From: Mycobacterium stomatepiae
GTDB taxonomy: Bacteria; Actinomycetota; Actinomycetes; Mycobacteriales; Mycobacteriaceae
DNA length: 64,000 nucleotides
Direction: 5' to 3'
Assembly: GCF_010731715.1 (NCBI RefSeq)
Contig: NZ_AP022587.1
Location: 4,960,001 to 5,024,000, forward strand
The translations under genes were made by a program, and so were the position numbers. Under the pieces are notes generated by a model. The model saw only the letters and a program-made list of their open reading frames with translations. It was not told the origin of the DNA and made no database searches. Of this stretch, positions 1-16,604 are shown piece after piece (position 1 is the stretch's first letter; the number at the start of each line of letters is the position of its first letter).

Positions 1-643
1 GCAGCAACATGCAGATCACGTGCGCGATCTCGGTGGGGGTGCCGACCCGCCGCATCGGGATGTCCTTGAGAACAAGAGCTTCGCGCGCCGACCCGACGGG
101 GCTGCGCTCGCGGTACATCTCGGTCTCGATCGGCCCCGGGGCCACCGCGTTCACGGTGATGCCCGACGACGCAAGCTCGCCGGCCCAAATCCGGGTCGCG
201 GTCTCCAATGCGCCCTTCGTAGCGGCATAGGGAGTGCGCTCGTCGACGCCGGTCGTCGTGAGGCTGCTGAGGTTGACAATGCGGCCCCACCCCGCCTCGA
301 CCATGCCGGGCAACACGGCCTGCACCACCTGCACCGCGGTGCGCACATTCATGTCGTAGGTGAGAAATAGGTCGTCCAGGTCGATCGACCCGATGTGGCC
401 GAACCGGGCCAGGCCGACGTTGTTGACCACGGCGTCGACCCGGCCCTCCGCGACGATCGAGTCGAGGGCCGCCGCGGTCGCCTCCCGGTCGCTCAGGTCG
501 ACCGCGACGAACCGGCCCGGAAAATCTGGCGGCGCGCTGCGCGCCAGTCCAATCACCTCGTAGCCGTCGGCGGCGAGGCGGTCTACGACCGCGCGGCCGA
601 TCCCCTTTTACGCCCCGGTGACGAGCACTCGCCGCTTCGACAT
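1..643 (-). pseudogene. Short-chain dehydrogenase/reductase, interrupted by in-frame stop and cut by window edge
   Basis: Reading leftward from ATG 643-641, the frame gives a classical SDR: an N-terminal TGA-x-KGIG cofactor loop, VDAVVNNVG (the NNAG-type motif), a catalytic Tyr-Lys in PYAATKG, and VAPGPIETEM. Codon 12 (608-610) is TAA and falls inside the glycine-rich NAD(P) loop, between TGA and KGIG. No other stop is seen to the window edge and the rest of the fold motifs are intact, so the lesion is recent or a base-call error. The 3' end lies outside the window. Substrate unknown. It is an SDR by family; loss of function is inferred, because initiation downstream of the loop would remove the cofactor site. 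Confidence 0.75.
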
Positions 644-7224: not shown

Positions 7225-8130
7225 TCAGGATCGTGACGCGGCTTTCGCGGGAGACTTCTTGGCCGACGCCTTCTTTGCCGCGGCCTTCTTGGCGGGTGCC
7301 TTCTTGGTGGCGGTCTTCTTCGCCGGTGCCTTTCCGTCGCCGGAGCGCGCCTTCACGCTGGCCTCCAGCTTGGCGAGCAAGTCGGAGACATCTTCGGTCT
7401 CGTCCAGCTCTTTCGGCTTCTCCTCGGCGGTAAACGCTTCTCCACCTTCGAGTTTCGCATCAACGAGCTCCTGCAGCTGCTCCTGATAGGTGTCGTGATA
7501 GCGGTCTGGGTTGAAGTCCTCGGCCATCGACTCCACCACCTGCCCAGCCATCTTCAGCTCCGCGGGCTTGATCTCGACCTTCTTGTCCAGCACTGGGAAG
7601 TCGGGGTCGCGGATCTCGTCCGGCCACAACAAGGTGTGCACCACCATTACGTCACTCTTGCCAAAGTCCGTGACCCGCAACGCCGCAAGCCGGGTCTTGT
7701 TGCGCAGCGTGAAATGAACGATGGCCATCCGGTCGGTCTCAGCGAGCGTCTTGGCCAGCAGGACATACGATTTGGACGACTTCGAGTCCGGCTCCAGGAA
7801 ATAGCTGCGATCGAACATCATCGGGTCGACGTCGCTGGCAGGGACGAACTCCAGTACTTCGATTTCGCGACTGCGTTCTTCGGGCAGGGTGGAGATGTCG
7901 TCGTCGGTGATCACTACCATCTGCCCGTCGTCGGATTCGTAGGCGCGGGCGATGTCCCGATATTCGACGACCTCGCCGTCGAGCTCGCACACCCGCTGGT
8001 AGCGAATGCGGCCGTTGTCCTTGGCATGCACCTGATGGAACTTGATGTCGTGGTCTTCGGTGGCGCTTTACACCTTGACCGGCACGTTGACGAGCCCGAA
8101 CGCAATCGAACCCTTCCAGATGGAGCGCAT
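7225..8130 (-). pseudogene. mku: NHEJ DNA end-binding protein Ku (mku), nonsense codon at residue 21
   Basis: From ATG 8130 the frame encodes the Ku start MRSIWKGSIAFGLVNVPVKV, then TAA at 8068-8070, then SATEDHDIKFHQVHAKDNGRIRYQRVC, which is normal Ku sequence (VKVYSATEDHDI in the family). A tyrosine TAC thus reads as TAA. The remaining 280 residues are open and include the Ku beta-barrel and a long Lys/Ala-rich DNA-binding tail (KKTATKKAPAKKAAAKK). Total coding length is 301 codons, longer than the 273-residue Rv0937c. Reinitiation at GTG 8031 would delete 33 N-terminal residues including the first strand. Ku binds double-strand ends and recruits LigD, whose gene here is also damaged. A sequencing error remains possible. 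Confidence 0.85.
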
Positions 8131-8285
8131 GGTGTCAGTATGCCCATACCATCGCCGGCAAAACAGCCCGACGGGCCCGTGAGCTGCGATTGAGCGGTTT
8201 ACAGCCGCATCGTCGGTGCAGCATAATTCGGGTGGTGCAGCGCTGGTTCCGCCGCGAACGAACAGCGAAACCCGTTGACGGTCAA

Positions 8286-9359
8286 TCAAACCAGGGGTGA
8301 GTCCCCGGAATAGTGGCGAACCTGATTGCCGCCGGCGCGTTTGGCTTCGTACATGGCGGCGTCCGACGTCCTGATCAGTTCGTCGATGAGTTCCACGCCC
8401 GCGGCGGCCGGGCCGGTAGCAAGCAAGGCGCTGGAGGTGCCGATGCTCGCCGTGATCTCGAAGGGCAGCGCGGCGACCGCCGCGCACATTCGTTCGGCCA
8501 TCCGCGCGGGGTCGGGCGTGGTTTTGATATCGGCGACGACGAATTCCTCCCCGCCCGCCCGGCCGATCACGGCCGTGGCACGACTGCTCTGCTGCAGCGC
8601 GGCGGCGACGGCGACCAGCGCTCGATCGCCCGCGGCGTGGCCGTGCGTGTCGTTGAGCTGTTTGAATTCGTCGAGATCGATGACCGCGACCACCAGATAG
8701 CAGCCCGGTGTGTTGCGATGAACCCTGATCAATTCGTACGCGGAGTTGTTGAAGGAGCGCCGGTTGTGCAGGCCGGTGAGGGGATCGCGGCCGGAGCTCT
8801 GCAGATCGGTTCGCAGCGTATGCACCAGCGACTGCATACCCAAGGGCACTCCGATGTTGAGGCCTATCACCACGATCAGGGAGGCCGCGGTCAGCGCTGC
8901 GTCTCCGGTGCTCGCGATGATGCGATACGACAGGACCAGTGCGCATGTCGCGGCCACACCGAGGTTGACGAAGACGTAGGGCAGGGCGTGGAAGTAGGCG
9001 ATGTAACCACCCAGTGCCGCGAAAGTCGTGCATCCCATCAAGCCCACGTAGGGGCTCGACAGGGATAGCAGCGCCGCCGCGATGCCCGCCATTGCGACGA
9101 TCAGCCAGCTGTTCGACTGGCGTCGGGTCGGCCAGCGCTTCAACCGCAGGGTCGCACCGGCGATTCCGCAGGCCGATGCCACGATGGTCACCCCCCGCGT
9201 CGCGTGATCCGCGGGCCCCGCCGGACTCCAGAGCATGATCAGCGGGAAAGCCGCGAATGACGCGATGAACACGGCCGATATCCTGCGCCACGGTGTCAGA
9301 AGGCCGTGACCGTCCAGGTAGGCACTGATCCAGTCGAACTGGTCTGGCTGCTTTGCCAC
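8286..9359 (-). CDS. Membrane-anchored diguanylate cyclase (GGDEF domain)
   Basis: The N-terminal half holds about six hydrophobic segments (ISAVFIASFAAFPLIMLW, ATCALVLSYRI and others). A GGDEF domain follows: DPLTGLHNRRSF, IDLDEFKQLNDTHGHAAGDRAL, and the active-site signature GRAGGEEF, which is catalytically competent. It should make cyclic di-GMP from GTP at the membrane. No EAL domain or extra sensor is visible. The start is uncertain. GTG 9359 (VAKQPDQFDW) gives the family-like N terminus; GTG 9443 is open in frame but lacks a ribosome site; ATG 9372 follows AGGAGG too closely and is out of frame by one base. The gene interrupts the usual mku-ligD neighbourhood. Confidence 0.85.
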   Translation of the reverse strand: MAKQPDQFDWISAYLDGHGLLTPWRRISAVFIASFAAFPLIMLWSPAGPADHATRGVTIVASACGIAGATLRLKRWPTRRQSNSWLIVAMAGIAAALLSLSSPYVGLMGCTTFAALGGYIAYFHALPYVFVNLGVAATCALVLSYRIIASTGDAALTAASLIVVIGLNIGVPLGMQSLVHTLRTDLQSSGRDPLTGLHNRRSFNNSAYELIRVHRNTPGCYLVVAVIDLDEFKQLNDTHGHAAGDRALVAVAAALQQSSRATAVIGRAGGEEFVVADIKTTPDPARMAERMCAAVAALPFEITASIGTSSALLATGPAAAGVELIDELIRTSDAAMYEAKRAGGNQVRHYSGDSPLV

Positions 9360-9469
9360 GGAACTCGCCCATACCTCCTGGTCGGTAGCGCCGTCGAGCG
9401 CCGTCGAACCAGGGCACGCCCGAACTCGGGCAACCCCGGCCACCGAGGTACTGGGTGAAACTGCCGGGG

Positions 9470-10375
9470 CTAGAAGGCGATTGAGCGCAGGGCGGCGCGA
9501 TCGGGCAGATCTGCACCGGCGCGTCCGACGGTCAGTGCCGACACCAGCCCCGCCGCCTCCAGCGCCGCGGTCAGTTCGTCGAGCTGGATCCTGGCCAGGG
9601 CGGCCCTCCGGTCACCGCCCAGCAGGTCCATTCCCCAGAGCGCGTCGAGCAGGCCGACCATGAACGCATCGCCGGCGCCGATGGTGTCGACCACCCGGAC
9701 CTGCTTCGGGGCCACCTGTGCCTCGCCCGCCGCGCAAAACGCCCGCGAACCGTGTCCGCCCATCGTCACGGCGACGATCGCGGGTCCCAGCGCCAGCCAG
9801 GCCCGGGCCGTCTGCTCCGGCTCGTGGTCGGGTTCGATCCAGCGCAGATCCTCGTCGCTGACCTTGACGATGTCGCTGCGCTCGATCAGATGGGTGATGC
9901 GTTGCCGCGCCAGAGCCCGGTTCTCGATCAGCGACGAGCGCACATTGGGGTCCAGGGTGACCGTCGCCGACAGCCGGTAGGCGTCGAGTAACGCCGCCAC
10001 CGCCAAGCACCCCGGCTCGAGCACGGTCGCGATGGATCCGGTGTGCACCACCAACGGCGGGGCAACCTCGGGTGTGCCGGCCAGCTGCCAGTCCAGATCA
10101 AAGGCGTAGGAGGCGGACCCGTCGTCGGTGATCGTCGCCGCCGCGGTCGGTGTGCGAGCGGCGGTCACACTTCCCGGAACAAGATGTACGCCAGAGGCTT
10201 TGACGTAATCCGCGATCCGCCGGCCATACGGGTCGTCGGCGATGTGAGTCAGGAAGTCGACATCACGACCCAGCCGGCCGAGTCCGACGGCAACGTTGAG
10301 TGGACTGCCGCCGACATGTTCGTCGCGCCCGACGATATCGATCAGCGCCTCGCCGATCACCAGACCGCGGCTCAT
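9470..10375 (-). CDS. PfkB-family sugar kinase (probable fructokinase)
   Basis: A 301-residue ribokinase/PfkB-fold kinase. The N-terminal GGSPLNVAVGLGRLG and the C-terminal anion-hole and base motif DTIGAGDAFMVGLL are both present. It probably phosphorylates fructose or a related ketose at the expense of ATP. Its ATG (10375-10373) overlaps the stop of the polyol dehydrogenase gene as ATGA. The pair therefore encodes a dehydrogenase that makes a ketose and a kinase that traps it. Last gene of a four-gene leftward operon. Substrate is inferred from context; a pentulose or other hexose is possible. Confidence 0.85.
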   Translation of the reverse strand: MSRGLVIGEALIDIVGRDEHVGGSPLNVAVGLGRLGRDVDFLTHIADDPYGRRIADYVKASGVHLVPGSVTAARTPTAAATITDDGSASYAFDLDWQLAGTPEVAPPLVVHTGSIATVLEPGCLAVAALLDAYRLSATVTLDPNVRSSLIENRALARQRITHLIERSDIVKVSDEDLRWIEPDHEPEQTARAWLALGPAIVAVTMGGHGSRAFCAAGEAQVAPKQVRVVDTIGAGDAFMVGLLDALWGMDLLGGDRRAALARIQLDELTAALEAAGLVSALTVGRAGADLPDRAALRSIAF

Positions 10376-11781
10376 CGCACCAATGCGTCCAGCGTCGCGC
10401 GAGCTCCCTTGCTGTGCAATGAGTCCAGCGCCCAGCGGTAAGCCTCGACGAACCGATGCTGGTGGGACAGGTCAGCGAATACCGCGGTGATCTCGATGAA
10501 GGCGCATGCGTTGTCGCGCTGCGACCGGGCGATCGGAATGAGTGAATCCGCCAGCTGGTCCACCACCTCGTACGGCTCGCCCCACTCGTCAACGCCTTCG
10601 GCGTAGCGGGCCCAACTGGCCACGGCCGCTGATGCCATCTGAACCGGCCCGTCGCTGGCCAGGTTGTCGCAGATGACGGGGAACAGCCATTTCGGAATGC
10701 GGTCCGACGAGTACGCACACAGCCGCGCGACGGTGTCGCGCACGGCCGGATTGGCGAACCGCTGAACCAGCGTGCGGCCGAATTCATGGAGGTCGATCCC
10801 GGGCACAGGGGGCAGTGTCGGGATGGCCTCGGTGTCGAAGTAGGCGAGCAAGAACTTGGCGAACAACGGATCCTGTGCGGCTTCGTGCACCAAACGGTAG
10901 CCGCACAGATGCGCGAAGTAGGCCAGGCACTGATGCCCCGCGTTGAGCATTCGCAACTTCATCAACTCGTACGGGCGGACGTCGTCGACCAGCAGCACGC
11001 CCGCCCGCTCCAGCGGTGGCCGCCCGTCGGCGAAGTCGTCCTCGAGCACCCAGGCGGTGAACGGCTCGGCCACCACCGGCCACCGGTCGTTGACGCCGAA
11101 GTCGCGGCGCACTTCTGCCGCCATCTCCAAAGTCGTTGCGGGAGTTATGCGGTCAACCATCGAACTCGGGAAACGGGCGTGCTGCGCGACCCATTCGGCC
11201 AGTTCGGGATCGAGGCGCTCGGCGCTTGCCAGCACGGTACGCCGGGCGACCTCGCCGTTGTTCTCGATGTTGTCGCAGGACGCGATCGTCGGCGCGGGGA
11301 TTCCACGGTCGCGTCGCCTGGCCAGCGCTTGGGTGATCAACGTGAACGCGGGACCATCGGGATCGCGGTACCCGCCCTCGGTGATGGTCAGCGAAATGAT
11401 CCGCGTCGACGGCGCGGCAAGTACCTCCAGAGCCGATTCCGGATCATCCGGCGCGTAGCGGTAGTCAACGATTGAGCCGATCACTTGGGCGTCCCGGCTG
11501 CCGTCGGGATTCTCCAGTATCAGCGTGTAGAGACCGTCCTGACCGTTCAGAACGTCGCGCATGGTCCAGTCGGCGGGCATTACCCCGATCCCGCAGATGC
11601 CCCACTCGTGCGCCAGGCCCTGTTGCAGCAACAGGTTGATATACGCGGCCTGATGCGCCCGGTGAAAGTGACCGGCGCCGATGTGTGCGATGCCGACGCT
11701 GACGGTGTCGCGGTCATACTTCGGCGCGTCGATCGGCAGCTTGGGGAGCGACGCATTGTTCAGATCGATCGCGTTGGCCAT
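10372..11781 (-). CDS. Mannitol dehydrogenase-family polyol oxidoreductase (copy 1)
   Basis: A 469-residue member of the long-chain polyol dehydrogenase family. It has the N-terminal NAD-binding motif AHIGAGHFHRAHQAAY, the SLTITEGGY segment, CDNIENNG, and the catalytic signature KxxxxNxxH as KLRMLNAGH (Lys about 275, Asn 280, His 283). The reaction is oxidation of mannitol, arabinitol or a similar polyol to the ketose with NAD. ATG 11781 is chosen because AGGAGG lies nine bases upstream; the frame is open further but without a ribosome site. It overlaps the downstream kinase gene. No transporter for the substrate is encoded nearby. Confidence 0.9.
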   Translation of the reverse strand: MANAIDLNNASLPKLPIDAPKYDRDTVSVGIAHIGAGHFHRAHQAAYINLLLQQGLAHEWGICGIGVMPADWTMRDVLNGQDGLYTLILENPDGSRDAQVIGSIVDYRYAPDDPESALEVLAAPSTRIISLTITEGGYRDPDGPAFTLITQALARRRDRGIPAPTIASCDNIENNGEVARRTVLASAERLDPELAEWVAQHARFPSSMVDRITPATTLEMAAEVRRDFGVNDRWPVVAEPFTAWVLEDDFADGRPPLERAGVLLVDDVRPYELMKLRMLNAGHQCLAYFAHLCGYRLVHEAAQDPLFAKFLLAYFDTEAIPTLPPVPGIDLHEFGRTLVQRFANPAVRDTVARLCAYSSDRIPKWLFPVICDNLASDGPVQMASAAVASWARYAEGVDEWGEPYEVVDQLADSLIPIARSQRDNACAFIEITAVFADLSHQHRFVEAYRWALDSLHSKGARATLDALVR

Positions 11782-11839
11782 CGTTGGCCACCTCCTCCCC
11801 GGGCCCGAGCCCGGATCGCTACTGCCCGTGGCCGATGCC

Positions 11840-12697
11840 CTACATGAGTGAGGAACCTCGAGCCGGCACGGCCGACAACCGCAGGAAATCAGCGAGAGCA
11901 CGCCATGAATCAGTGATCGCTACCGCACCGGCATCAATCAGTTCTGCACGGCGGCAATCGCGTTCGTCGGGCAGTAAGAACATCAGATTACCGACGGTGG
12001 CGTAGCCGGCCGCGACCGCGGAAGACACCCCCGCCACCGAGTCTTCGATTGCTAGCCCCTGTTCGGGCGTGACGCCCAGCACTTGACCCGCATGCAGGTA
12101 TACCGCCGGATCGGGCTTGCTGGTCGGCACCGGAAGCGAATCCTCCGCGCTGAACGTCACCGATTCCGATATCAGCGCGTCCAGGCCGGTGGCGGCGAAG
12201 CACGCACGCAGCCGTCTGGTCGCGCTGGAGCTGACGGCCGCCAGCGCGTAATGCGCCGCGAGGTCTCGTAACGGTTCCAGCACCTGCGGATCGGGTGTCA
12301 GGGTGACCGCCAGATGGGCGGTGACCCGTTCGCGCTCCTCACGCACCCACTGTTCGAGCTCGTCGGCTGACAACGCGATGCCGCTGGCCAGGTCGCCGGC
12401 CGAGGCGACCGCCGCCGCGGGACGGCTCGGGATCAGCGCCGGATCGAACGGCACCCCGCATTGCACCGCCAAGTCGAGGGCGGTGTTGCGAAAGTTCTTC
12501 CCGACGGCGCGCTTACGCAACTCCTCCGAGCTGAGCGGAGCCGTCACGCCGAACCTGGCCAGGAAACGGTTCGTCACCTCGGTCGACGCGTCGAACGCCG
12601 GCCGCTCCGAGGCGAACAGGCTGTCGTCGGCGTCCAGGAGCAAGGTGGTGACCGGCGTTGGGTCGAATTCGCGCACGAAGGTCAGGCCCACGGTCAT
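11840..12697 (-). CDS. HAD-superfamily phosphatase/phosphomutase-like hydrolase
   Basis: A 285-residue HAD protein. Motif I is TLLLDADDSLF (nucleophile Asp in DADDS), motif II AAVSSSATRRLR, motif III Lys in PTSKPDPAVYL, and motif IV AIEDSVAGVSSAVAAG, with an inserted helical cap between I and II as in beta-phosphoglucomutase-like enzymes. It probably dephosphorylates a sugar or polyol phosphate in the same pathway as the flanking polyol dehydrogenases. Its start overlaps the stop of the upstream dehydrogenase by four bases. It lies between two dehydrogenase paralogues in one operon. Substrate unknown. Confidence 0.82.
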   Translation of the reverse strand: MTVGLTFVREFDPTPVTTLLLDADDSLFASERPAFDASTEVTNRFLARFGVTAPLSSEELRKRAVGKNFRNTALDLAVQCGVPFDPALIPSRPAAAVASAGDLASGIALSADELEQWVREERERVTAHLAVTLTPDPQVLEPLRDLAAHYALAAVSSSATRRLRACFAATGLDALISESVTFSAEDSLPVPTSKPDPAVYLHAGQVLGVTPEQGLAIEDSVAGVSSAVAAGYATVGNLMFLLPDERDCRRAELIDAGAVAITDSWRALADFLRLSAVPARGSSLM

Positions 12698-14130
12698 CGT
12701 GCCACCAACTCCCGCTCGTCGTTGCGCAGCGCGCTATGCAGCGTGGGCACCACACCTCGCTCGTCGATCTCGGCGATCATGTCGCCCAGGCGCTCGGCAA
12801 AACCGGGAACCGCGCGCACCTGGGCGAACATCTCATGCCCCAGTAGCGGATCAGGGTTGGTGCTCGCCATGTTGGCCAACTTAACGACCGGAATGGCCTG
12901 CGAGTCCTCGAGGTTGATCTTGCGTCCCTTCAGGTCATGGCCGCGCATGTAGCGGGACCATCCGGCGACCGCCAGCATCAGCAGCGTGTGCGGCCTGCCC
13001 TGCGCGATCGCCCCCTCCAGCGACGGCAGCACGAACGACGCGATCTTGCTCGTTCCCCGTCGGGCCAGCCGCGACAGTTGGTCGCTCATCCGGGGATTGC
13101 CGAGCCGATTGAGCAGGGTGCCGCGGTACTCGGGGGTGTTCATCCCGGGAACGGCGGGCAGCAGCGGCTGAATCTCGTCGCGCAGCAAGGTCTCGACGTA
13201 GTCGAAGATCACCCGGTCTCGCATCGCCTCGTCGGTGCGCTGGTAGCCGGCCAGGGTGGCCAAACAGCCCAGCGCGATATGGGCTCCGTTGAGCAGACGG
13301 GTCTTGATCAGCTTGTGGTCGCGGACGTCGGCAACGAATTCGGCACCGACCAGGTCGAGCGGCGGACGCCAGTTGCAGAAGGAATCCTCGATCACCCACT
13401 GGCGATACGGCTCGGTCACGACCGGATATTTGTCGGCCACGCCGAAGGTCTGCTCGACGAATTTGCACTCTGACTTCGAGGTTTGCGGGGTGATGCGATC
13501 GACCATGGTCGACGGGAACGCGACGTACGTATCGATCCAGCGTGCCAGCGCGGGATCCTTCAATGCCGCGAACGACACCAGCGCGGTCCGCGCCGGCTGG
13601 GTGTCACCCGGGATGTTGTCGCAGCAGAGCACGGTGAACGGCGCGATGCCCGCGCGTCGCCGGCGGTCGAGAGCTTCGGTCAGATATCCCCACGCGGTGG
13701 CATAGCCGCCGTTCGCGACCAGGTCGGCACGCACGTCGGGGTGCTCGGCGTCGAACTCGTCGGTGACGGGGTTCAGGAAGTATCCGTTGTTGGTGATGGT
13801 CAGGCTGACGATGCGGGTTTGGGGGTCTGCCAGGGCGGCGCGGACCGCGGCGCCATCATTCGGCGCGTAGTGAACGGAGCCGATCGAGCCGACCACGCGG
13901 GCGGTTTGGCGGTCGTGACCGCGCTGCACGACGGTGTACAGCCCATCCTGTGCCGACAGCAGGTCTTTGGCGTTTGGGGAGTTCAGGCTAACGCCGGTGA
14001 CTCCCCACCGGTCTGAAATGCCGGAGCGGGCAAGGTCGTCGAAGTAGACGGCCTGGTGTGCGCGGTGAAAGTTGCCCGCACCGATGTGAACGACACCACG
14101 CCCGAGGGCCGACCTGTCGTAGGTGGGCAC
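12694..14130 (-). CDS. Mannitol dehydrogenase-family polyol oxidoreductase (copy 2), apparent 5' frameshift
   Basis: The open frame from GTG 14130 encodes 478 residues: VVHIGAGNFHRAHQAVYF, LTITNNGYF, CDNIPGD and the catalytic KTRLLNGAH (Lys about 276). Upstream, a near-ideal AGGAGG (14220-14225) precedes ATG 14216 and MADVFPLGVQK, but that frame stops at 14169. Restoring one G in the GG run near 14183 would fuse the two as MADVFPLGVQKGGVPLTD followed by ATLPLHSQRVDVPTYDRS, which reads like the family N terminus. So the gene probably spans 12694-14216 with a one-base deletion, or a sequence error. First gene of the leftward polyol operon. It may act on a different polyol from copy 1. Confidence 0.8.
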   Translation of the reverse strand: MPTYDRSALGRGVVHIGAGNFHRAHQAVYFDDLARSGISDRWGVTGVSLNSPNAKDLLSAQDGLYTVVQRGHDRQTARVVGSIGSVHYAPNDGAAVRAALADPQTRIVSLTITNNGYFLNPVTDEFDAEHPDVRADLVANGGYATAWGYLTEALDRRRRAGIAPFTVLCCDNIPGDTQPARTALVSFAALKDPALARWIDTYVAFPSTMVDRITPQTSKSECKFVEQTFGVADKYPVVTEPYRQWVIEDSFCNWRPPLDLVGAEFVADVRDHKLIKTRLLNGAHIALGCLATLAGYQRTDEAMRDRVIFDYVETLLRDEIQPLLPAVPGMNTPEYRGTLLNRLGNPRMSDQLSRLARRGTSKIASFVLPSLEGAIAQGRPHTLLMLAVAGWSRYMRGHDLKGRKINLEDSQAIPVVKLANMASTNPDPLLGHEMFAQVRAVPGFAERLGDMIAEIDERGVVPTLHSALRNDERELVAR

Positions 14131-14346
14131 GTCAACTCGCTGCGAATGAAGGGGAAGTGTCGCGTCGGTCAGGGGGACGCCGCCTTTTGGACGCCAAGGG
14201 GGAAGACATCAGCCATTGTCCTCCTGTGCCCCAAGGAGGCCGCGGGTCTAACCCATCCGTGGGGCATGTCACAGATTAAATTGACGCGACGGGCCATTTT
14301 CGGAGGTCAAAGCAGTTAACGCCGCCGAAACGCGTAGGTTGGCACC

Positions 14347-16604
14347 ATGGCACCGCGGGTGAAGCTGACCAACCCCGACAAGGTGCTCTACCCTGCGACC
14401 GGCACCACTAAGTCCGATGTCTTCGCCTACTACACCGGCATCGCGGAGGTGATGGTGCCGCACATCGCCGGGCGCCCGGCTACTCGTAAACGTTGGCCGA
14501 ATGGCGTTGAGCAGTCATCTTTTTTCGAGAAGCAGTTGGCTTCCTCGGCGCCGGAGTGGTTGCCGCGCGCCAGTATTTCGCACCGGTCCGGGACGACGAC
14601 GTATCCGATCATCGACAGCGCCGACGGCCTGGCCTGGATCGCGCAGCAGGCTGCGCTCGAGGTGCACGTGCCGCAGTGGAGGTTCGTCGCGCAATGGACT
14701 CGCAGGAGAGCCGAAGAACTCAAGCCCGGGCCGGCGACACGATTGGTGTTCGACCTTGACCCGGGCGAGGGCGTCACGATGGCGCAGCTGGCCGAGGTTG
14801 CCCGCGCGGTACGCGATCTGATCGGCGATATCGGCTTGACGACCTTCCCGCTCACCAGCGGCAGCAAGGGGCTGCATCTCTACGCGCCGCTGGACGAGCC
14901 GGTGAGTAGCAACGGTGCCACCGTGCTGGCGAAACGTATTGCGCAGCAACTGGAAACTTCGATGCCCACGTTGGTCACCTCGACGATGACCAAGAGCGTG
15001 CGGGCCGGTAAGGTGTTCCTGGACTGGAGCCAGAACAGCGGATCCAAGACCACGATCGCGCCCTACTCGCTCCGCGGGCGGGAGCGCCCGACCGTCGCGG
15101 CGCCGCGCAGCTGGGAAGAACTCGACGATCCGGCGCTGACCCAGCTGCGCTACGACGAGGTGCTGGCCCGGGTGGCCCGCGACGGCGATCTGCTGGCGCC
15201 ACTGGATGCGGACGCTCCCGTCGCGGATCGGCTGACCACCTACCGCAGCATGCGCGACGCGGCGAAGACGCCCGAACCCGTTCCCCGGGCTAAACCTGTA
15301 GCGGGCCAAGGTAATACATTCGTCATCCAGGAGCATCATGCCCGTCGGCTGCACTACGACTTCCGGCTGGAACGAGACGGTGTGCTGGTGTCCTGGGCGG
15401 TGCCGAAGAACCTGCCAGAGACGACATCGGTGAACCATCTCGCGGTGCACACCGAAGACCATCCGCTCGAATACGGCACGTTCGAGGGCGACATCCCCAA
15501 AGGGGAATACGGTGCCGGCAAGGTGGTCATCTGGGATTCCGGAACCTATGACGCCGAGAAGTTCCGCGAGGACGAGGTGATCGTGAATCTGCACGGGAGC
15601 CGAATCTCCGGGCGCTACGCCCTGATTCAAACCAAGGGTGACCAATGGCTGGCGCATCGGATGAAGGACCAGAAGGTCCTCGAGTTCGACGAGCTCGCCC
15701 CGATGCTCGCCACACATGGGTCGGTGGCGGCGTTGAAGGCAAGCCAGTGGGCGTTCGAGGGGAAGTGGGACGGCTACCGGCTGCTGATCGAGGCGGATCG
15801 TGGCGGTCTGCGGCTGCGGTCCCGAAGCGGTCGCGACGTCACCAAGGAATACCCGCAATTTGGTTCGCTGGCAGCGGATCTTGCCGACCATCACGTAGTG
15901 CTCGACGGCGAGATCGTGGCGTTGGACAAGTCGGGCGTGCCCAGCTTCAACGAGATGCAGAGCCGCAACCGCGCAACCCGCATCGAGTTCTGGGCGTTCG
16001 ATTTGCTGTACCTGGACGGTCGCTCGCTGCTGCGGGCAAAATACTCCGATCGCCGCAAACTCCTCGAAACGCTGGGTAGCGCACGCAGTCTGATCGTTCC
16101 GGGTTTGGTGCCCGGCGAGGACGGTGCGCAAGCGCTTGAGTATTCCCGTGCACACGGCTGGGAGGGCGTGGTTGCCAAGAAGCGCGACTCCACCTACCAG
16201 CCGGGCCGTCGCTCGGCGTCCTGGGTCAAGGACAAGCATTGGAGCACACAGGAAGTCGTGATCGGCGGCTGGAAGGCCGGAGAGGGTGGGCGCACCAGCG
16301 GCATCGGTTCGCTGATGGTGGGGATACCCGGCAGCCGGGGCTGCGCTTCGTCGGCAGGGTCGGCACCGGCTTCACCGAGCGCGACCTGGCCAACCTGAAA
16401 AAGACGCTGGCGCCGCTGCACACCGACGAGTCCCCGTTCGACGCCCGGCTGCCCACGCGCGACGCCAAGGGTGTGACGTTTGTCGAGCCGGTTCTGGTCG
16501 GCGAGGTGCGCTACAGCGAGCGGACCCCGGATGATCGCTTGCGCCAACCGAGTTGGCGAGGATTGCGGCCGGATAAGAAGCCAAGTGAGGTGGTGCGCGA
16601 ATGA
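14347..16604 (+). pseudogene. ligD: NHEJ ATP-dependent DNA ligase LigD, frameshifted near its C terminus
   Basis: The three LigD modules are in mycobacterial order. The polymerase/primase domain covers about residues 1-290, with the metal-binding FDLDPGEG. The 3'-phosphoesterase domain (about 310-450) has FVIQEHHARRLHYDFRLERDG. The ATP-dependent ligase domain has adenylated Lys473 in EGKWDGYR and motif V GVVAKKRDSTY. At the GGGG run 16337-16340 the frame breaks: frame one ends at 16398, whereas the true C terminus (LRFVGRVGTGF... SWRGLRPDKKPSEVVRE) continues in the next frame to TGA 16604. One missing G explains it. The truncated product loses about 90 residues of the OB fold, including motif VI. 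Rv0938 is 759 residues; the restored protein would be about 752. Confidence 0.88.

What the first reader, a model, noticed from the sequence alone, without database searches (positions are those of the whole stretch)
7225..16604. Both core NHEJ genes, mku and ligD, carry inactivating lesions
mku has TAA in place of the conserved Tyr codon at position 21 (8068-8070). ligD loses frame at a G run (16337-16340), which removes the C-terminal OB-fold segment with motif VI. Ku and LigD act together, so parallel loss would be coherent pathway decay and unusual for mycobacteria. Both lesions look recent because all other motifs are intact. Base-call or homopolymer error is the main alternative.
Basis: partly seen in the sequence, partly recalled or inferred. 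Interest (0 to 1): 0.75.

Follow-up and report, generated by a model that had tools for sequence, protein, structure and literature searches.

The report
Broken DNA end-joining genes, mycobacterium
A slow-growing mycobacterium with a large genome seems to have lost its DNA end-joining repair through two small mutations, most likely as part of a recent wave of gene breakage across its genome rather than a targeted loss of one pathway, though a sequencing error, above all in the second gene, is not excluded.

Summary
ligD (14347-16604) loses frame at about 16334-16340, leaving its OB domain in another frame. It is the only Ku found in the 6.21 Mb closed genome. mku is open in 80 of 80 fetched relatives' loci, ligD in 74 of the 75 that hold both pieces.

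The interpretation needs widening. Of genes intact in two relatives over 800 kb, 18 of 454 are broken mid-gene here, against 2 of 418 and 1 of 434 in the relatives. The genome also holds at least 20 near-identical copies of an IS30-like element, absent or only traces in four relatives. So mku and ligD look like two hits among many in a recent, genome-wide pseudogenization, not shown to be coordinated pathway decay, although five broken genes including these lie within 21.5 kb (P about 0.03).

Lesion spectrum and N/S counts argue against sequencing error, but the IS copies show error-like G/C-run deletions, so ligD is the less certain. Other ligase and polymerase genes remain open; Ku has no spare. 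Ku loss is published for M. leprae: a new case of a known kind.

The parts
8071..8130 (-). mku, N-terminal piece (20 codons before the stop)
   Evidence: same piece in frame with the rest in 80 of 80 fetched loci
8068..8070 (-). in-frame TAA at mku codon 21
   Evidence: one private substitution in the codon
7225..8031 (-). mku, C-terminal piece; open from GTG 8031 (268 aa)
   Evidence: Ku domain 145.7 bits; TIGR02772 247.8 bits
14347..16398 (+). ligD, N-terminal frame: POL, PE and ligase nucleotidyltransferase domains, then off-frame tail (683 aa)
16334..16340 (+). ligD frameshift site (one-base loss against all 77 aligned relatives, in a G/C stretch)
16239..16604 (+). frame that carries the ligD OB domain (PF04679) from about its residue 32 on
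1..643 (-). short-chain dehydrogenase gene, nonsense codon at 608-610; third broken gene of the window
8286..14130 (-). genes between mku and ligD: GGDEF protein, PfkB kinase, two mannitol-dehydrogenase-family genes, HAD hydrolase; not called broken

Best explanation
Both NHEJ genes are real, recent loss-of-function alleles in a Mycobacterium simiae-complex species at an early stage of genome-wide pseudogenization. Shown: the single Ku gene stops after 20 codons; ligD loses the frame of its OB domain; many other genes intact in two relatives are broken in this genome; one IS30-like element has at least 20 near-identical copies here and is absent or only a trace in four relatives. Inferred: no full-length Ku is made, and a restart at codon 34 would lack an N-terminal loop and Asp28 that are reported to matter; DNA ends are then not bridged and two-component end joining is off. 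The ligD lesion alone could be buffered by other open ligase and polymerase genes; Ku has no spare. The common cause is weakened purifying selection on accessory genes (bottleneck or niche change), not selection against NHEJ.
For: Lesions private to this genome: mku open in 80 of 80 loci, ligD in 74 of 75. One Ku in the genome. Mid-gene breaks 18 of 454 here against 2 of 418 and 1 of 434. The 18 are 9 nonsense and 9 frameshift; indels in or within 900 bases of broken genes include ones of 7, 17, 19 and 35 bases. Private one-base deletions are not concentrated in runs (14 of 119 in runs of 3 or more). N/S of private changes 0.310 here and 0.311 in G109 over 472 intact genes: no surplus of random substitutions. 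G/C runs are as common as in the relatives. IS30-like element: 20 copies against 0, 0 and short partial matches.
Against: No reads and no second isolate. One-base deletions outnumber insertions 119 to 62 here, against 88 to 83 and 42 to 30. Broken genes are not rarer among the most conserved class: 5 of 89 at 97% identity or more, 15 of 376 below. Most broken genes carry one lesion and no relaxed constraint (N/S 0.295 in 23), as errors also would. IS copies show error-like deletions at short G/C runs. Counting all calls, start-site artefacts included, the contrast is weaker: 25 of 454, 11 of 418 and 9 of 434 (P 0.04 and 0.008). The 'mid-gene' rule was set after seeing the list, and mku itself falls outside it.
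Confidence: 0.6

Rival explanations
1. One or both lesions are consensus errors of a long-read assembly, ligD the likelier, and NHEJ is intact in the living strain.
For: Twenty copies of one IS differ at 9 columns in 15 combinations, 16 of the differing cells being one-base deletions, mostly at short G/C runs, which looks like consensus error; deletion bias 119 to 62; the ligD site is a G/C stretch; broken genes not depleted in the conserved class.
Against: Repeats are hard to polish, so IS copies may not speak for unique sequence; no 6-mer is more depleted here than in a control genome and G/C runs are not depleted; 9 of 18 mid-gene breaks, and mku, are substitutions, which would need a large surplus of random substitutions that N/S does not show.
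Confidence: 0.28
2. Coherent pathway decay: loss of one NHEJ gene relaxed selection on the other, and the pair was lost together for a reason specific to NHEJ.
For: Both genes of one pathway hit; Ku and LigD are both decayed in the reduced genomes G074, G114 and G328; five broken genes including these two within 21.5 kb (P about 0.03).
Against: The same genome has many broken genes of unrelated function; three of the five clustered genes are not repair genes; no relaxed constraint in ligD after the mku lesion.
Confidence: 0.08
3. End joining persists: Ku restarted at GTG 8031, or other ligases for LigD, keep the pathway working.
For: The restart ORF keeps most of the Ku domain; PE, LIG, POL, LigC-like and LigB-like genes are open; LigC is considered a backup in NHEJ (PMC8068969, abstract).
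Against: I see no ribosome-binding site before GTG 8031 (sequence); the product would lack residues 12-15, reported to mediate inter-dimer contacts (PMC12784962, passage), and Asp28 at a homodimer metal site (PMC12658125, passage).
Confidence: 0.04

Closest known systems
ku pseudogene of Mycobacterium leprae (PMC12658125, passage) and the decayed ku and ligD of reduced genomes G074, G114, G328
   Same: Ku, and in those genomes LigD too, inactivated in place in a mycobacterium
   Different: Those genomes are 3.1-3.3 Mb and their genes carry many lesions; here the genome is 6.2 Mb and each gene has one
Mycobacterial two-component NHEJ, Ku and LigD (Rv0937c and Rv0938, numbers from PMC6700215 passage)
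   Same: Orthologous genes, domain order POL-PE-LIG, opposite orientation with ligD downstream of mku's start
   Different: Neither gene is open here; about 6 kb of other genes lies between them
Split LigD-type genes (separate PE, LIG, POL) as described in Streptomyces (PMC5124664, listing and start of abstract only; recalled)
   Same: Own genome 1066448-1069617 has separate PE, LIG and POL genes followed by an Fpg/Nei-like gene
   Different: No Ku gene there; role untested

Membership tests
Working two-component bacterial NHEJ | An open, full-length Ku gene | tested here: not met
   TAA at codon 21; no second Ku
Working two-component bacterial NHEJ | LigD with polymerase, phosphoesterase and complete ligase domain in one frame | tested here: not met
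   POL, PE and nucleotidyltransferase in one frame, OB domain in another
Working two-component bacterial NHEJ | Ku-dependent end joining in the cell | not testable with these tools
   needs the strain
NHEJ loss by pseudogenization, as in M. leprae | Recognisable ku and ligD at the ancestral place with inactivating lesions | tested here: met
   flanked as in relatives
NHEJ loss by pseudogenization, as in M. leprae | Genome-wide excess of pseudogenes | tested here: met
   18 of 454 mid-gene breaks against 2 of 418 and 1 of 434 in 800 kb; not tested in the rest of the genome
NHEJ loss by pseudogenization, as in M. leprae | Reduced genome | tested here: not met
   6.21 Mb, the size of its relatives
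NHEJ loss by pseudogenization, as in M. leprae | Lesions confirmed by reads or in further isolates | not testable with these tools
   nearest listed Ku and LigD are 97% identical, other species or strains

The most novel reading that the evidence does not exclude
A 6.2 Mb slow-growing mycobacterium is caught at the start of reductive evolution, with a fresh IS30-like burst and, extrapolating from 800 kb, some hundreds of mostly single-lesion pseudogenes, and NHEJ is among the first systems to go, before any genome shrinkage. NHEJ loss would then precede genome reduction in mycobacteria instead of following it.
Probability: 0.35. Interest if true: 0.6.

Novelty: new member of a known kind. Interest (0 to 1): 0.42.

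Why it matters
A 2025 paper states that Ku is present in all mycobacteria except M. leprae (PMC12658125, passage), and a 2019 paper calls ku ubiquitous in sequenced Mycobacterium species and proposes it as a marker (PMC6700215, passages). Profile searches do not see a case like this: the broken Ku still scores far above cut-off. Bacterial NHEJ is associated with large genomes and slow growth (PMC7719229, passages), so an NHEJ-negative 6.2 Mb slow grower would be an informative exception and a natural contrast to its NHEJ-positive sisters.

Tried and rejected
Mutator or oxidative-damage signature: several nonsense lesions of the first 400 kb looked like C-to-A changes, but the private substitution spectrum matches the relatives (C>A 0.079, 0.095, 0.082), so it was dropped. 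Modified-motif error (GGGCCC) suggested by the IS copies: GGGCCC is not among the most depleted palindromes or 6-mers, and the control genome shows equal extremes. A second Ku elsewhere: none found. A loose first pass of the broken-gene test was swamped by start-site and antisense artefacts and was replaced, 8 and 8 ORFs were dropped as not coding-like. Fate of the locus in G291: the flanking gene has only a 35% identical match there; left. An essential-gene test with the reduced genome G074 could not be run. Literature: one search found no paper with its four terms on pseudogenes in this clade; searches listed none whose title or shown abstract start reports NHEJ loss in this clade. Species name not established; M. 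simiae complex by nearest named relatives.

Full report
Observation. The window is G000:C1:4960001-5024000 of a closed 6,210,822-base genome rated 100% complete. On the minus strand mku starts at 8130 and reads 20 codons to a TAA at 8068-8070; the rest is open from GTG 8031 to 7225. ligD starts at 14347 and holds the POL, PE and ligase nucleotidyltransferase domains, then loses frame at about 16334-16340; the OB domain (PF04679) is found in another frame ending at 16604. Both claims are correct.

Relatives. Eighty loci with record titles were fetched with the Ku piece, the best 80 of 119. The mku pieces are in one open frame in 80 of 80; the two ligD pieces in 74 of the 75 loci that hold both, the exception being a metagenome-assembled genome. 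The nearest Ku and LigD in the protein collection are 97% identical (P0001, named M. lentiflavum; P0121, unnamed) and full length; the 120 LigD relatives listed, of 2,809, are 747-763 aa. The species thus lies near M. lentiflavum, M. triplex and M. florentinum; G363 has the contig length listed for M. florentinum. I found no second isolate.

Genus. A Ku match is found in 386 of 396 genomes, 355 of 361 good ones, and ligD DNA in 392 of 396, 359 of 361. The match lists were cut, so I cannot say how many unlisted ones carry stops. Of 16 handles looked at again, most chosen for weak or missing Ku, the 3.1-3.3 Mb genomes G074, G114 and G328 have Ku remnants with stops, and their LigD is in pieces with stops. 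G291, closed, 4.55 Mb, has no Ku over cut-off and no ligD DNA match. G193 and G369 (3.2 Mb drafts) show no Ku and only LigD fragments. G015 and G031 lack Ku in drafts of 710 and 400 contigs but have open LigD, so an assembly gap is possible there. PMC12658125 (passage) states that Ku is present in all mycobacteria except M. leprae, where it is a pseudogene.

Is it specific to NHEJ? I compared 800 kb of this genome with the matching stretches of G109 and G363. Genes full length in both other genomes, with differences mostly at third codon positions, were tested. Breaks were called in 25 of 454 genes here, 11 of 418 in G109 and 9 of 434 in G363 (P 0.04 and 0.008). Most control calls lie in the first 60 residues, where start sites are uncertain. 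Limited to breaks beyond residue 60 and more than 10 from the end, a rule set after seeing the list, the counts are 18, 2 and 1 (Fisher 4e-4 and 7e-5); ligD is among the 18, mku (codon 21) is not. Genes hit include an acyl-CoA dehydrogenase, amidohydrolase, P450, enoyl-CoA hydratase, luciferase-like oxidoreductase, thiolase and P-type ATPase (others are named only by my reading). Five broken genes including mku and ligD lie within 21.5 kb (P about 0.03, 5,000 random draws of 20 genes). Inside the window three genes are called broken, a short-chain dehydrogenase, mku and ligD, of 42 testable before the coding filter.

Real or error? For real lesions: 9 of the 18 are nonsense and 9 frameshift; indels in or within 900 bases of the frameshifted genes include ones of 7, 17, 19 and 35 bases. 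Private one-base deletions are not concentrated in runs (14 of 119 in runs of 3 or more). N/S of private changes equals that of G109 (0.310 and 0.311 over 472 intact genes). G/C runs of 4 or more are as common as in the relatives (4,651, 4,679 and 4,828). For error: one-base deletions outnumber insertions 119 to 62 here, against 88 to 83 and 42 to 30. The broken genes are not rarer among the most conserved class (5 of 89 against 15 of 376). Their constraint is not relaxed, which fits recent lesions and errors alike. Twenty copies of one IS differ at 9 columns in 15 combinations, mostly at short G/C runs, which looks like consensus error in repeats. The ligD site is a short G/C stretch, so I hold it less certain than mku.

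IS burst. A 1,313-base element whose protein has HTH_38 and rve domains (IS30-like is my recalled label) has 20 matches of 1,311-1,313 bases in this genome, none in G109 and G163, and only short partial matches in G363 and G276 (40 of 145 candidates were scored here, so 20 is a minimum). A fresh burst of one IS together with scattered single-lesion pseudogenes is what early genome decay looks like (established knowledge, recalled).

Consequence. Ku has no second copy. A restart at GTG 8031 would begin at residue 34 and lack the N-terminal loop (residues 12-15) that PMC12784962 (passage) says mediates inter-dimer contacts, and Asp28, which PMC12658125 (passage) places in a homodimer metal site. 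LigD without its OB domain loses the part that caps the ATP pocket and binds nicked DNA (PMC8656161, passages). Other genes are open: a LigC-like ligase at 4272083-4273138 beside a POL gene, a second POL gene at 3476294, a LigB-like ligase at 2017993, and separate PE, LIG and POL genes with an Fpg/Nei-like glycosylase at 1066448-1069617 (the names LigC and LigB are recalled). So the ligase step has possible stand-ins and Ku has none; the mku lesion is the decisive one. That end joining is off is inferred, not shown.

Conclusion. Observation confirmed. The best reading is two recent loss-of-function alleles within a genome-wide recent wave of gene breakage (0.6), with consensus error, above all in ligD, the main rival (0.28). 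It is a new case of a known kind, NHEJ loss by pseudogenization, in an unexpectedly large mycobacterial genome.

Noticed in passing
window 1-643 (minus strand): A short-chain dehydrogenase gene, open in two relatives, has a nonsense codon at 608-610; two more broken genes lie just left of the window (own 4955100-4957009).
   Followed up: partly
own genome 1066448-1069617 (L148:8448-11617): Separate, open PE, LIG and POL genes of LigD type followed by an Fpg/Nei-like glycosylase gene; no Ku beside them. LIG and POL parts matched in some relatives (such as G131, G234, G360) but not in G109 or G363.
   Followed up: partly
own genome, 20 places (such as L127:16921-18233): IS30-like element in at least 20 near-identical copies; the copies differ mainly at short G/C runs in many combinations, which looks like consensus error in repeats.
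   Followed up: yes
   Followed up: partly
window 8286-14130: A GGDEF protein and a sugar-alcohol gene set (two mannitol-dehydrogenase-family genes, HAD hydrolase, PfkB kinase) sit between mku and ligD; the distance between mku and ligD varies from a few hundred bases to several kb among relatives.
   Followed up: no
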